A DNA stretch of 64,000 nucleotides from positions 124,001-188,000 of the forward strand of contig NZ_CP010835.1 of assembly GCF_001577775.1 (NCBI RefSeq), read 5' to 3'. Position numbers and translations under genes: made by a program. Positions 24,403 through 30,083 of the stretch are shown here, piece after piece (position 1 is the stretch's first letter; every line of letters begins with the position of its first letter). The notes beneath the pieces were generated by a model. The model was not told the origin of the DNA. It was given only the letters and a program-made list of their open reading frames with translations, and ran no database searches. The stretch is from Pyrococcus kukulkanii. GTDB taxonomy: Archaea; Methanobacteriota_B; Thermococci; Thermococcales; Thermococcaceae.

Positions 24403-25791
24403 ATGAGCAAGGAGTACTCAACGATAAGCAAGATCTATGGCCCCTTAATGATAGTTGAAGGTGTAAAGGGAGTAGCCTATGGTGAGGTCGTTGAGATAGA
24501 GACTGAGACAGGTGAGAAGAGAAAGGGTCAGGTTTTAGATGCTAGGGAGAACCTAGCTATAGTTCAGGTCTTCGAGGGAACGAGAGATCTTGACATCAAA
24601 ACTACCAGCGTTCGCTTTACCGGAGAGACATTGAAGGTTCCAGTTTCAATGGACATGCTTGGAAGGATATTCAACGGTATCGGTAAGCCCATCGATGGCG
24701 GACCCGAGATAATCCCAGAGGACAGGAGAGATGTTCACGGTGCTCCCCTTAATCCTGTTGCTAGAGCTTATCCGAGAGACTTCATCCAGACTGGAATCTC
24801 GGCAATAGATGGGATGAACACCCTTGTTAGGGGCCAAAAGTTGCCAATCTTTAGTGGTTCAGGTCTACCCCACAACAAACTTGCAGCTCAAATAGCTAGG
24901 CAGGCGAAGGTCCTCGGAGAAGAGGAAAGCTTCGCAGTAGTCTTCGCGGCGATGGGTATCACATACGAGGAGGCAAACTTCTTCAAGAAGAGCTTTGAAG
25001 AGACTGGAGCAATTGAAAGGGCTGTGCTATTCTTAAACTTGGCTGATGATCCAGCAATTGAGAGAATTATAACCCCAAGAATGGCATTAACAGTAGCTGA
25101 GTATTTGGCCTTTGACTATGATATGCAGGTTCTCGTAATTCTTACGGACATGACGAACTACTGTGAGGCCTTGAGAGAGATATCCGCGGCAAGAGAAGAG
25201 GTTCCAGGAAGAAGAGGTTACCCGGGTTACATGTACACAGACTTGGCTACTATCTATGAGCGTGCCGGCCGTGTAAGGGGAAGGAAGGGATCAATAACTC
25301 AGATGCCCATCCTCACGATGCCGGACGATGACATAACCCATCCAATCCCAGACCTTACCGGTTACATTACTGAGGGCCAGATAGTCCTGAGCAGAGAGCT
25401 TCACAGGAAGGGTATCTACCCGCCAATTGATGTCTTACCTTCGCTCTCAAGGCTGATGAAGGACGGTATAGGCAAAGGCAGAACAAGGGAGGATCACCCA
25501 CAACTTGCCCAGCAGTTATATGCTGCATACGCAGAGGGTAGGAGCTTGAGAGATCTAGTTGCTGTAGTTGGAGAGGAGGCACTAAGTGAGACCGATAAGA
25601 AGTACTTGGAGTTCGCTGACAGGTTCGAGAGGGAGTTCGTCGCGCAGGGCTATGACGAGGACAGGAGTATTGAAGAAACTCTCGATCTTGGTTGGGAGCT
25701 CCTATCGATACTGCCAGAGAGCGAGCTGAAGAGGGTAAAGAAGGAAATGATTATGAAATACCATCCAAAGTACAGGAAGCGCTCCTCTTAA
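24403..25791 (+). CDS. atpB: A-type ATP synthase regulatory subunit B
   Basis: Non-catalytic nucleotide-binding subunit of A1, 462 residues. The P-loop is degenerate ([19 protein letters not shown]), as expected for B. Other family segments are [36 protein letters not shown] in two parts and the C-terminal [18 protein letters not shown]. The start is taken as the ATG at 24403 ([14 protein letters not shown]); GTG 24394 and ATG 24397 are in frame but sit inside the binding-site region. Confidence 0.95.
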
Positions 25792-25815
25792 CCACTTTTT
25801 AAAAGGTGACAGAGA

Positions 25816-26460
25816 ATGCCAGAGATTCTCAAGGTCAAGCCCACAAGAATGGAACTGCTTAAGCTCAAGAGGAGGGTTAAGCTGGCTGAGAGAGGGCATA
25901 AGCTACTCAAGGAGAAGCAGGATGCACTAATAATGGAGTTCTTCACGATATACGATGAGGCTTTAAACCTCAGGAAGGAGCTCATCCAGAAGATGGAGGA
26001 AGCTTTTGAAGCTCTAAGAAAGGCTCAGGTTGACATTGGCTCACTAAGGCTCAAGGAGATTGCTATAGGTGTTAATCCAAACAAGGAGATCGAAGTGAGA
26101 ACGAGGAACGTAATGGGCGTTAGGGTCCCCCTCATCGAGATGCCCGAAATGAAGAGGAAGACTGGAGAAAGAGGGTATTCGTTCATAGCGACGACTTCCA
26201 CTGTAGATGCTGCAGCTGAAAAGTTTGAGGAAGTTCTCGAGCTCGCCGTAAGGTTGGCCGAGGTTGAAGAGGCCCTTAAGAGACTTGGTAGAGAAATAGA
26301 GAAGACAAAGAGAAGGGTTAATGCTCTCGAATATATAATAATCCCGAGAATGAAGAACACAATAAAATTCATTGAGCAGCACTTGGACGAGATGGAAAGG
26401 GAGAACTTCTTTAGGCTCAAGAGGGTTAAGGCATTAATTGAGGCTAGGTCTCAAGGATAG
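25816..26460 (+). CDS. atpD: A-type ATP synthase subunit D
   Basis: Central rotor shaft subunit, 214 residues, forming a long antiparallel coiled coil. The N-terminal helix has [28 protein letters not shown] and the C-terminal helix has [39 protein letters not shown] (family hallmarks, given in parts). Last gene of the operon; the start follows AAAAGGTGA. A new promoter-like element follows its stop. Confidence 0.94.
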
Positions 26461-26491
26461 CGTTTGTGTAGGTTGTTATGTAGGCAAATCG

Positions 26492-26499
26492 CTTAAATA
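26492..26499 (+). promoter_or_regulatory. TATA box for the MBL/chemoreceptor/AlaX operon
   Basis: CTTAAATA preceded by an A-rich BRE-like AAATCG, 32 bases after the atpD stop and about 38 bases before the chosen GTG start. It suggests the next three genes have their own promoter in addition to any read-through from the ATPase operon. Confidence 0.5.
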
Positions 26500-26533
26500 T
26501 TTCCTTTTTCTATCCCTCTTTTGGTGGGGGAAG

Positions 26534-27301
26534 GTGGGAGAGTACTTTATCACTTCAAACTTGGATCCCAGAAAAGATCACGTCCTCTACAAGGACGATG
26601 AACACATGGTTGTTTATTTGGGAACTCAAGAAGGAGGGCAGGACGTTGACGTTAACAGCTACCTCATCGTGAGTAGGGGAAGGGGGATTCTCATAGATCC
26701 CGGAGGGTATAAGATATTCTCAAAGGTTCTTGCGAATATATCAAAGTACATTGATCCCAGGAATATTGACTACATCTACATGTGTCATCAGGATCCAGAT
26801 GTTGCTGGGAGCATTCCCCTATGGAGGGAAATTAGTGATGCAAAAATCTTAGTCCACTGGCTCTGGGTCAGGTTCTTGCCTCACTTCGGATTCGAGAGCA
26901 TAGGTAGCTATGCTCATGAGCTACAGGATGAGGGGGAGATTCTCGAGTTCGGGGCTACAACACTGGAGTTTATTCCTGCCCATTTTCTTCATAGCCCTGG
27001 CCACTTCACGGTTTATGACCACAGGAGCAAGTTCCTGTTTACGGGTGATATTGGGATAGCGTTCCCCGATGAGGGCTACCTCGTCGTCGAGGACTTTGAA
27101 AAGCACGTTCAGTACATGAGGCCTCTCCATGAGAGGTTAATGGCGAGCAATAAGGCCCTAAAGGTCTGGGTGAACAAGGTTAGGTACCTGGATATAGAGG
27201 CAATTCTTCCCCAGCATGGTGCCATAATACCCAGGAAGTACGTCAAGAGGTTCTTTGACTGGCTTGAGAACCTGAAGGTTGGTGTTGACCTTATGAGGTG
27301 A
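26534..27301 (+). CDS. Di-iron metallo-beta-lactamase fold protein, ODP (oxygen-binding) like
   Basis: 255-residue soluble MBL-fold protein related to the di-iron domain of flavodiiron proteins and to stand-alone ODP oxygen-binding proteins. Putative metal ligands are H85, D87 and D89 (HQDPD, the HxDxD variant), H153 or H157 (HSPGH), D172 (FTGD) and H228 (PQHG). There is no flavodoxin domain. In Treponema an ODP works with a cytoplasmic chemoreceptor as an oxygen/iron sensor; here a chemoreceptor-domain gene follows directly. GTG at 26534 is chosen because GGTGGGGG precedes it closely; reading further upstream would begin inside atpD. Oxygen binding itself is inference. Confidence 0.82.
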   Translation: MGEYFITSNLDPRKDHVLYKDDEHMVVYLGTQEGGQDVDVNSYLIVSRGRGILIDPGGYKIFSKVLANISKYIDPRNIDYIYMCHQDPDVAGSIPLWREISDAKILVHWLWVRFLPHFGFESIGSYAHELQDEGEILEFGATTLEFIPAHFLHSPGHFTVYDHRSKFLFTGDIGIAFPDEGYLVVEDFEKHVQYMRPLHERLMASNKALKVWVNKVRYLDIEAILPQHGAIIPRKYVKRFFDWLENLKVGVDLMR

Positions 27302-27306
27302 TTTCA

Positions 27307-28071
27307 ATGAACATTAGGAACATAGAAAAGGCATCAAATGCTTTGGCTCAATCATTGAGGATAAAGACTTCAAGCAAGGAGGCCAGCAAGATAGTTGAAG
27401 AGCTCGCTGAGGAGATAAGCGGAAAGTTCATGGAGAACAATACAATGATACTTGAAAATATCGAAAGATTGTCTCAAGTGATGGTTGAGCTGGATAAGTT
27501 CAGGAAAGAATTCTTACCATTCTTCCAAAGGTTTGAAGTGTTCGCTAGGGAGTTCAACACCTTAGTTCAGAACCTTGAATACGTCTCAAAGATCAGCGAT
27601 TCTATTGCGAGCGTTGCTAAGCAGACTAACCTTGTTGCTCTAAATGCATCAATAGAGGCGGCGAGGGCTGGAGAGGCTGGAAGGGGTTTCGCTGTAGTTG
27701 CCGACGAAATTAGGAGGATGGCAGTTCAGACAATGAATTTAGCTAAAGAGATAAAGGACTTTAACTCGAGGGTCATGTCCCAGCTTGATGCATTGAGGGA
27801 TGCCTTGGAGGTCATGGACAGAATAAAAGAGGGGACTGAAATCTTGGGGAGGGACATTGAGGTTATAGTTGAGATAAGCAACGTGCTCAGCGAAATTTCC
27901 AAGGAGCAGGAGCAGTTCATAAACGACATAAAAAGGCTCAAGGGTATAGCTCTAGCTTTGAGGAAGTTTGCGGACATGCAGGATAAGTACAATAAAGAAC
28001 TGGCTACCCTTCTTAGGTTAATGGTTAGTGAATACTCGAAGGAGCAACTTGAGGAGGAGGGTATATTATGA
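27307..28071 (+). CDS. Soluble methyl-accepting chemotaxis (MCP) signalling-domain protein
   Basis: 254 residues, all helical, with no transmembrane or ligand-binding domain. The centre is the conserved MCP hairpin tip: VAKQTNLVALNASIEAARAG, then EAGRGFAVVADEIRRMA, with the turn near residues 117-123. About 110 residues flank it on each side, so it is essentially a bare signalling hairpin. It lacks obvious HAMP. In other organisms the tip contacts CheA/CheW; no che genes are in the window. The start is ATG at 27307 behind AGGTGA. It is flanked tightly by the ODP-like gene and AlaX (ATGA overlap), suggesting the MBL protein is its sensor (inference). Confidence 0.85.
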   Translation: MNIRNIEKASNALAQSLRIKTSSKEASKIVEELAEEISGKFMENNTMILENIERLSQVMVELDKFRKEFLPFFQRFEVFAREFNTLVQNLEYVSKISDSIASVAKQTNLVALNASIEAARAGEAGRGFAVVADEIRRMAVQTMNLAKEIKDFNSRVMSQLDALRDALEVMDRIKEGTEILGRDIEVIVEISNVLSEISKEQEQFINDIKRLKGIALALRKFADMQDKYNKELATLLRLMVSEYSKEQLEEEGIL

Positions 28072-29282
28072 CGGAAAGGCTGTATTACGAGGATCCCTAT
28101 CTGAGAGAGGCTGAGGCGATAGTTGAGGACGTAAAGGTTGAGGGAGATAGGGTTGCAATAAAGCTTGACAGGACAATATTCTATCCGGAAGGCGGTGGTC
28201 AACCTGGGGACAGGGGAAAGATAAAGGGTGAGGGGTTTGAAGTTTTAGTAGAAAATACCGTTGAGAAGGCGGACGGGATATGGCACCTTGGAACTTTGAA
28301 AGGTTCAACGCCTAAGAAGGGAGATAAAGTTAAGCTCGACCTTGACTGGCGCTGGAGATATGAGAATATGAAGCTCCATACTGGCCAGCACATATTCTCC
28401 GCAGTACTAAAGAAGCTGTACGATCTCGATACTTCGGGCTTTCACATTTTCGAGGATTATGCAAAGATAGAGGTTAACGGCGAGGTTACGTGGGAGATGA
28501 TAGAAAGGGCCGAGCTTGAAACTAACAACATAATTCAAAAAGATCTACCAGTTACCGTGGAGGAGTATAAGTACCTCCCTGACGATATTGCAAATATCCT
28601 GAGGAAACATGTTACTAAAGTCAAGGACAAGGTGAGGATCGTAAAGATAGGAGATATTGATGTAACTCCATGTGGTGGAACCCACGTTAACTCTACCAGG
28701 GAGGTTGGCTTCCTTAAAGTTCTCAGGTTCTATAAAAAGTCGAAAGGAGTTTGGAGAATTGAGTTCGTTGCGGGCGAAAGGGTGATAAGGAAGCTTAACG
28801 AGATATTAAAGGATTACTGGGAGTCCCTAGATCTAATGCCAAATAAGAACCCTCCGCTCTCTGAGAGGGTCAAGGAAATTCTTGGCTCAATTGATAAACT
28901 TGAGGATGAGTTTGATGCCCAGAGGAGAGAGCTCTGGAAGTGGAAGGAGCAGGCGTTGCTCAGTAGAAGCTGGGAAGTGGGTGACTATAACGTCGTGACT
29001 TTCGTGGAAAGCTGGGAGATGAAGGATGCCCAAGCGTTTGCGGTGGACTTCGTTAAGAACAACCCTGGAACGATAGTTATTTTGGCAAGTGAGGACTATG
29101 TAATCTTCGCTAGAAACGAGGAGGTTCCTGTTTCGATGAAGGAGCTACTCAAGAAGGTCATGGAGGAGCTTGGCGGAAAGGGGGGTGGAACAGATAATTT
29201 AGCGAGGGGCAAGATAGAGGCAGAGCCTGAAGATGTGATAGATGTCGCCCTCGAAAAGCTAAAGGAGATGCTCGAGGCCTAA
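28068..29282 (+). CDS. alaX: Alanyl-tRNA editing protein AlaX-L
   Basis: Free-standing trans-editing enzyme that hydrolyses Ser-tRNA(Ala) (and possibly Gly-tRNA(Ala)). 404 residues, the long AlaX-L (type II) form. The glycine-rich N-terminal motif YPEGGGQPGDRG is at about 39-51. Zinc ligands are H104 and H108 (HTGQHIFSAVL) and C202 and H206 (CGGTHVNSTREVGF). A C-terminal helical plus DHHA1-like region ends in GGKGGGTDNLARGKIE. ATGA overlap with the chemoreceptor gene. Full AlaRS (alaS) starts beyond the right edge of this window, so this is not a broken alaS. Confidence 0.92.
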   Translation: MTERLYYEDPYLREAEAIVEDVKVEGDRVAIKLDRTIFYPEGGGQPGDRGKIKGEGFEVLVENTVEKADGIWHLGTLKGSTPKKGDKVKLDLDWRWRYENMKLHTGQHIFSAVLKKLYDLDTSGFHIFEDYAKIEVNGEVTWEMIERAELETNNIIQKDLPVTVEEYKYLPDDIANILRKHVTKVKDKVRIVKIGDIDVTPCGGTHVNSTREVGFLKVLRFYKKSKGVWRIEFVAGERVIRKLNEILKDYWESLDLMPNKNPPLSERVKEILGSIDKLEDEFDAQRRELWKWKEQALLSRSWEVGDYNVVTFVESWEMKDAQAFAVDFVKNNPGTIVILASEDYVIFARNEEVPVSMKELLKKVMEELGGKGGGTDNLARGKIEAEPEDVIDVALEKLKEMLEA

Positions 29283-30083
29283 CCTCCTGTACACGTACTC
29301 TTTTTGTTCTTTTGGAACTTTCGGCTTTTCCACTTTCTTTAAGGCTTTCTCTTTATCCAGAAGGCCGTACCTCACTAGCGCAGCTATCCTTCTGTGCTCA
29401 AAGGAATAACCATGCTTCTCCCAGAACCTCTCCAATGCTGGCCCTAGGATTAAACAGTTGCTCGTGTACCCAGGAAGCTCTGGAAGCTTAAATGGCAGGC
29501 TTTTGAGAATCTTAAGCCTTTCCTCCTCAGTCATTAGGGAGAGCAGTCTTACCTGAATAATCCCCCCGCTCATAAGCATGTAGGGGTGGTGGCCGAACGG
29601 TATTTCGTGCCCAGTTATTATGTACCTGTATCCATTCTTCAGGGCATACTTTCGAAGGGTTTCCATTGTTCTTTTAGAGCACTTCCTGCAGGGTGATTTG
29701 GCTTTAAGGAGAGCGTCTCTAAATATATCCGAATAGTCCCTTTTTATAACTTCAAAAGGCACCCCTAGGTACTCCGCAACCCTTCTGGCATTTTCTATTG
29801 CCTCTTTGGCTATGAAGCCGTGATCAACCATTACGGCCTTGAGCTCTGGGATTTTGTAGTGCTCCTTTGCTAGGTACAATGCTACCGTTGAATCTTTGCC
29901 CCCAGAATATGCCACGATTGCTCTGTCAACATTCTTCATTATCTCCTCCAGCTCTCTTCTTATCTTTTCTTTGTTTGGCGGATGCTCGAGATAGGCCTTG
30001 CATTCTTTGCATATAGGTTTTCCATCTATTATGAATATCCTCGTTATCCTCTCGTCGTTTATGCAGATTGAGCATTTGAGCAT
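29259..30083 (-). CDS. PP-loop ATPase with N-terminal zinc-ribbon cysteines (tRNA thiolation-like)
   Basis: 274-residue N-type ATP pyrophosphatase. The PP-loop is AYSGGKDST near residues 58-66. Four N-terminal cysteines (CSIC, CKEC) look like a zinc ribbon and a second pair is in SPCRKCSKRTME. This layout resembles TtuA/Ncs6-type tRNA sulfur-transfer enzymes, but the C-terminal zinc finger of TtuA is missing and the conserved GHEIPFGHHPYML differs from the usual GHNLDD. Substrate unknown. It follows a radical SAM gene by nine bases in the pyrC-pyrK operon. The 3' end overlaps the convergent alaX by 24 bp. Confidence 0.75.
   Translation of the reverse strand: MLKCSICINDERITRIFIIDGKPICKECKAYLEHPPNKEKIRRELEEIMKNVDRAIVAYSGGKDSTVALYLAKEHYKIPELKAVMVDHGFIAKEAIENARRVAEYLGVPFEVIKRDYSDIFRDALLKAKSPCRKCSKRTMETLRKYALKNGYRYIITGHEIPFGHHPYMLMSGGIIQVRLLSLMTEEERLKILKSLPFKLPELPGYTSNCLILGPALERFWEKHGYSFEHRRIAALVRYGLLDKEKALKKVEKPKVPKEQKEYVYRRLGLEHLL

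What the first reader, a model, noticed from the sequence alone, without database searches (positions are those of the whole stretch)
26492..29282. Candidate oxygen/redox-sensing operon: ODP-like di-iron MBL protein, bare chemoreceptor hairpin and AlaX-L
The sequence shows an MBL protein with a complete set of putative di-iron ligands (H85, D87, D89, H153/157, D172, H228). It is followed at once by a 254-residue MCP signalling hairpin with no membrane or sensor domain, and then by alanyl-tRNA editing AlaX-L through ATGA overlap. A TATA box sits just before the first gene. In Treponema denticola an ODP acts with a cytoplasmic chemoreceptor as an iron/oxygen sensor. An archaeal version joined to tRNA quality control would be new as far as I know. 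No CheA/CheW is in the window, so the output could be chemotactic or something else.
Basis: partly seen in the sequence, partly recalled or inferred. Interest (0 to 1): 0.72.

Follow-up and report, generated by a model that had tools for sequence, protein, structure and literature searches.

The report
Archaeal oxygen-sensor and chemoreceptor gene pair
A Pyrococcus-like archaeon carries a two-gene oxygen/iron-sensing chemotaxis module of an already described kind (a di-iron sensor protein plus a stripped-down chemoreceptor); its own promoter ties it to the swimming genes, while the tRNA-editing gene behind it is just an old chromosomal neighbour.

Summary
26534-27301 encodes a true ODP (Pfam ODP, 242 bits; model matches T. 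maritima and T. denticola ODP at TM 0.83-0.90; six di-iron ligands invariant). 27298-28071 is a bare MCP hairpin (two helices). The pair is adjacent in 30/30 loci of this ODP clade in Thermococcaceae and also occurs in Methanothermococcus-type and Desulfurobacteriaceae genomes. ODP-MCP operons in bacteria and archaea were already described, so this is a new member of a known kind. Two parts of the reading fail. (1) "No CheA/CheW": the same genome has both, elsewhere. (2) The tRNA-quality-control link: in 55/55 testable relatives without the pair, alaX directly follows V-ATPase subunit D; ODP-MCP is a ~1.6-kb cassette between them (27/27). Two things appear new: the ODP promoter carries two boxes matching the published EarA (archaellum activator) motif, shared with the arl, che and MCP promoters, which predicts membership of the motility regulon; and in one complete genome that lost CheA/CheW the ODP has lost a ligand (H153R) and the MCP its first arm. 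Most likely function: ODP reads O2/Fe(II) and signals through this MCP into the CheA array.

The parts
25816..26460 (+). V-ATPase subunit D gene (upstream neighbour, not part of the module)
   Evidence: PF01813 2e-66; directly precedes alaX in 55/55 testable ODP-MCP-less relatives
26465..26484 (+). two EarA-type boxes GTGTAGGT / ATGTAGGC, 12 bp apart
   Evidence: conserved in nearly all ODP-A promoters; match the reverse complement of the published A(C/G)(C/G)TACA(T/C) EarA motif; shared with arl, che and MCP promoters
26484..26500 (+). BRE-like and TATA box (GCAAATCGCTTAAATAT)
   Evidence: sequence; conserved in relatives
26534..27301 (+). ODP: oxygen-binding di-iron protein of the metallo-beta-lactamase fold, 255 aa
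   Evidence: PF19583 242 bits; TM 0.83-0.90 to ODP crystal structures; six ligands invariant
27298..28071 (+). sensor-less cytoplasmic chemoreceptor (MCP signalling hairpin); likely start ATG 27307, 254 aa
   Evidence: PF00015 99 bits; two-helix hairpin model pLDDT 87, best matches chemoreceptor cytoplasmic domains; adjacent to ODP in 30/30 ODP-A loci
28068..29282 (+). AlaX-L alanyl-tRNA editing protein (co-oriented neighbour, probably co-transcribed; not a functional partner)
   Evidence: tRNA_SAD + DHHA1; present in 90/94 relatives, with or without ODP-MCP; ancestral neighbour of V-ATPase D

Best explanation
An ODP-MCP chemosensory cassette. The di-iron ODP binds Fe(II) and O2 in the cytoplasm (inferred from family and ligands). 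Its state is relayed to the adjacent membrane-free, sensor-free MCP hairpin (inferred by analogy with T. denticola). The MCP tip joins the CheW/CheA array encoded elsewhere in the genome (CheA/CheW presence shown; assembly inferred) and so biases archaellum switching through CheY: aerotaxis, or avoidance of oxygen by an anaerobe. Transcription starts from its own promoter with two EarA-type boxes, placing it in the motility regulon (prediction). AlaX downstream is a positional passenger.
For: ODP family, fold and ligands. MCP bare hairpin with conserved tip. ODP-A is followed by MCP in 30/30 loci and in all 21 clade members of the ODP tree, archaeal and bacterial. CheA and CheW are in the same genome; ODP-MCP is in 28 of 34 CheW+ genomes and 3 of 60 CheW-. 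In complete CheW-less G069 the ODP has H153R, the only ligand change in 30 sequences, and the MCP lacks about 100 N-terminal residues. EarA-type boxes: in the own genome the sites with at most 2 mismatches lie at ODP, arlB, MCP/cheR divergent and MCP promoters; across 94 genomes 53 have hits against 3 control hits; 61 of 72 sites checked lie by ODP, arl or MCP genes. EarA gene beside arl, PF07381. T. denticola precedent read.
Against: No biochemistry on any archaeal ODP here. The CheW association is partly shared ancestry: independent pairs go the same way on average 3.8 times against 0.2 the other way, not significant. Six CheW+ genomes lack the pair. The boxes in the ODP promoter are inverted and closer to the BRE than at arl, so EarA might repress, or another factor might bind. 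ODP-MCP contact was not modelled.
Confidence: 0.82

Rival explanations
1. ODP, MCP and AlaX-L form one functional redox / tRNA-quality-control operon (serine misacylation control under oxygen, signalled by ODP).
For: Same strand, ATGA overlap in the window and close relatives; ODP-MCP-AlaX stays together in G001 and G093, where V-ATPase D lies on another contig.
Against: alaX follows V-ATPase D directly (42-136 bp) in 55/55 relatives without ODP-MCP; in G081 ODP-MCP lies on another contig than V-ATPase D-alaX; spacing varies -23 to +50 bp; no AlaX beside ODP-MCP outside Thermococcales; AlaX is near universal while ODP-MCP is not.
Confidence: 0.04
2. ODP is a cytoplasmic O2/NO-detoxifying or other MBL enzyme, and the MCP beside it only a passenger.
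For: Same superfamily as flavodiiron proteins; stand-alone ODP-B paralogues without an MCP exist in Thermococcales, and other ODPs in Aquificota and Campylobacterota.
Against: No flavodoxin domain or partner beside it; the ODP-A clade is never found without the MCP; joint decay with the MCP where CheA/CheW is lost.
Confidence: 0.08
3. The MCP acts outside chemotaxis, for example as a scaffold in a CheA-independent response.
For: ODP-MCP detected in G049 and G081 without CheW.
Against: Both are incomplete drafts (96% and 79%); G049's sister G057 has CheW; the truly CheW-less complete genome G069 has a broken pair.
Confidence: 0.06

Closest known systems
T. denticola ODP (TDE2498) with cytoplasmic MCP TDE2496
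   Same: ODP beside a chemoreceptor without membrane or sensor domain; same fold and ligands
   Different: 47% identical; this one is in a hyperthermophilic archaeon, in a separate ODP clade, with archaeal promoter boxes
T. maritima ODP (6qrq, 6qwo) and T. maritima soluble chemoreceptor (3g67)
   Same: fold TM 0.90 for ODP; soluble hairpin receptor among the best matches
   Different: 44% identity for ODP; receptor about 22% identical
Flavodiiron proteins (e.g. 1vme, 1e5d)
   Same: MBL domain with equivalent di-iron ligands
   Different: no flavodoxin domain, about 20% identity, TM about 0.7
EarA regulation of the arl operon in P. furiosus (PMC10665913)
   Same: motif A(C/G)(C/G)TACA(T/C), repeats upstream of BRE/TATA
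   Different: reported there for arl promoters; here found at ODP-MCP, che and MCP promoters, and inverted at ODP

Membership tests
ODP (oxygen-binding di-iron protein) | ODP family sequence profile above cut-off | tested here: met
   PF19583 242 bits against cut-off 27.2
ODP (oxygen-binding di-iron protein) | di-iron ligand set HxDxD...H...D...H | tested here: met
   H85 D87 D89 H153 D172 H228 invariant with solved ODPs
ODP (oxygen-binding di-iron protein) | stand-alone MBL domain without flavodoxin | tested here: met
   255 aa, model TM 0.83-0.90 to 6qnm/6qrq/6qwo
ODP (oxygen-binding di-iron protein) | binds two irons and O2 as a peroxo adduct | not testable with these tools
   needs the protein
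ODP-coupled cytoplasmic chemoreceptor | MCP signalling hairpin with no TM or sensor domain | tested here: met
ODP-coupled cytoplasmic chemoreceptor | gene adjacent to ODP, conserved | tested here: met
   30/30 ODP-A loci; bacteria too
ODP-coupled cytoplasmic chemoreceptor | CheA/CheW available in the genome | tested here: met
ODP-coupled cytoplasmic chemoreceptor | ODP state changes CheA activity | not testable with these tools
   reported for T. denticola only
EarA regulon | EarA gene in genome and EarA-type boxes upstream of BRE/TATA | tested here: met
   L071:178-504 PF07381; boxes 26465-26484
EarA regulon | box orientation and distance as in arl promoters | tested here: not met
   inverted and adjacent to the BRE at ODP
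EarA regulon | EarA binds and controls the promoter | not testable with these tools
   needs ChIP/EMSA or an earA deletion
tRNA-editing-linked sensor operon | alaX linkage depends on ODP-MCP | tested here: not met
   alaX follows V-ATPase D without ODP-MCP in 55/55

The most novel reading that the evidence does not exclude
In Thermococcales one regulator with EarA-type boxes controls archaellum, che, chemoreceptor and ODP-MCP promoters together, so that oxygen/iron sensing is switched on with swimming; ODP-MCP is a mobile promoter-plus-two-gene cassette that spread between archaea and Desulfurobacteriaceae and decays when CheA is lost.
Probability: 0.5. Interest if true: 0.5.

Novelty: new member of a known kind. 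Interest (0 to 1): 0.4.

Why it matters
It extends a characterised bacterial oxygen/iron chemosensor to hyperthermophilic archaea with evidence that the pair works through CheA (joint decay), removes a tempting but false link to tRNA quality control, and gives a ready-made prediction of a wider motility regulon, which the P. furiosus EarA paper named as open (PMC10665913). Strict anaerobes of vents could use it to avoid oxygen.

Tried and rejected
AlaX functional link: rejected by synteny. Rfam elements in 25500-29600: none. Sigma-70/terminator scans: uninformative for archaea. Tree-corrected ODP-MCP/CheW association: right direction but too few independent changes for significance. The 3-mismatch genome scan has as many control hits (4) as real ones (5), so only sites with at most 2 mismatches plus their context, or the family-wide scan, were used. 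EarA-type boxes in Methanothermococcus-type ODP promoters: none clear. Muok 2019 full text not held; what it says beyond searches is from memory and not relied on. ODP-MCP complex was not modelled (single chains only).

Full report
WHAT IS THERE. The three genes are real and at the stated place. Protein 1 (26534-27301, GTG start) matches Pfam ODP at 5e-72 and its nearest solved structures are the oxygen-binding di-iron proteins of T. denticola and T. maritima. An AlphaFold model (pLDDT 91, pTM 0.91) superposes on those crystal structures with TM 0.83-0.90. H85, D87, D89, H153, D172 and H228 are invariant in 20 diverse homologues; H157 is not conserved in the solved ODPs. Protein 2 is an MCP signalling domain with no TM segment and is predicted as two long helices with a tip at residue 124, most like chemoreceptor cytoplasmic domains. 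Protein 3 is AlaX-L.

CONSERVATION. Of 94 Thermococcaceae genomes, 31 hold this MCP. Thermococcaceae ODPs fall into clade A (65% or more identical to the window's) and clade B (about 45%). Clade A is followed by the MCP in 30 of 30 loci looked at, window included, G069's MCP being truncated; clade B never is. In an outside search of 80 loci, MCPs of about 220-310 aa follow the ODP in roughly half, in Methanothermococcus-type MAGs, Aquificota, Spirochaetota, Nitrospirota and others. In the tree the window's ODP lies in a clade of 21 (SH-aLRT 100) made of Thermococcales, Methanothermococcus-type and Desulfurobacteriaceae/Aquificota sequences, all with a downstream MCP; that suggests transfer between domains (inference).

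OUTPUT. Across the family ODP-MCP is present in 28 of 34 genomes with a strong CheW match and in 3 of 60 without. Much of this is shared ancestry: on a V-ATPase D + AlaX tree there are 7 changes of ODP-MCP, and independent pairs agree on average 3.8 to 0.2, not significant. The three exceptions are informative: G049 and G081 are incomplete drafts, and G069 is complete but damaged, with ODP ligand H153 changed to R (the only ligand change in 30 sequences) and an MCP lacking about 100 N-terminal residues. Archaellin genes persist in many genomes without che or ODP-MCP, so the pair tracks che rather than the archaellum.

ALAX. alaX is found in 90 of 94 genomes. In every genome without ODP-MCP in which both genes lie on one contig and strand (55 of 55), alaX starts 42-136 bp after V-ATPase subunit D. 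In 27 genomes ODP-MCP sits between those two genes, 1.6 kb long (2.6-2.9 kb in G027 and G069, where a further MCP was inserted). In G081 ODP-MCP lies on another contig and V-ATPase D-alaX is uninterrupted. In G001 and G093 ODP-MCP-alaX is together but V-ATPase D is on another contig. The ATGA overlap is not conserved. So co-transcription is likely but a functional link is not supported.

PROMOTER. Upstream of clade A ODPs lies TRTGTAGGTnnTTRTGTAGGCAAAtyGCTTAAATAT, two 12-bp-spaced boxes followed by BRE/TATA; it is kept at G081's separate location and, in G027 and G069, in front of the inserted MCP. The boxes match the reverse complement of A(C/G)(C/G)TACA(T/C), reported as the EarA motif of Thermococcales arl promoters (PMC10665913). 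In the window's genome the sites with at most 2 mismatches lie at ODP, at the arl operon, between an MCP and cheR, and before another MCP; chance for the three sites other than ODP is about 1e-9 to 4e-8 on a simple model. Across the family 53 of 94 genomes have hits with at most one mismatch, against 3 control hits; of 72 sites checked 61 lie by ODP, archaellin or MCP genes with loose distance limits. EarA (PF07381) is encoded beside the arl operon. Caveat: box orientation and distance at ODP differ from arl, so the sign of control is open and another factor could bind.

MECHANISM. Shown here: family, fold, ligands, hairpin, adjacency, CheA/CheW in the genome, joint decay in one genome, shared promoter boxes. 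Inferred from T. denticola (PMC7666581, PMC6978683): Fe/O2 binding, conformational signalling from ODP to the MCP, and change of CheA activity. Inferred from general chemotaxis knowledge: CheY to archaellum.

KNOWN OR NEW. ODPs recruited to bacterial and archaeal signalling, including ODP-MCP operons in two gene orders, are attributed to Muok et al. 2019 in PMC7319448. This locus is therefore a new member of a known kind. In the papers searched I found no report of EarA boxes outside arl promoters in Thermococcales; the library is partial, so that is not proof of novelty.

Noticed in passing
L113:758-4885 (G018); also G020, G032, G055, G067: CheA, CheY and CheC-like genes beside the arl operon in genomes with no MCP (PF00015 zero hits) and no separate CheW gene; three of these genomes are closed. 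A receptor-less CheA module, with EarA-type boxes nearby.
   Followed up: partly
L104:2002, L105:2002, L106:2002; L122 near 2000: EarA-type boxes in a conserved divergent promoter between seryl-tRNA synthetase and a Vps4-like AAA ATPase.
   Followed up: partly
L053 and L068 (G027, G069): A second MCP (about 417 aa) inserted between the EarA-box promoter and ODP, giving promoter-MCP-ODP-MCP-alaX.
   Followed up: partly
L011-L046 clade B ODPs: A second, stand-alone ODP clade (about 45% identical) with no MCP beside it, grouping with Desulfurococcales ODPs.
   Followed up: no
L130-L133: Desulfurobacteriaceae/Aquificota ODP-MCP pairs group with the archaeal clade rather than with other Aquificota ODPs: likely inter-domain transfer.
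   Followed up: partly
window 29259-30083 (-): A PP-loop (ATP pyrophosphatase-like) protein gene convergent with and overlapping the 3' end of alaX by 24 bp.
   Followed up: no
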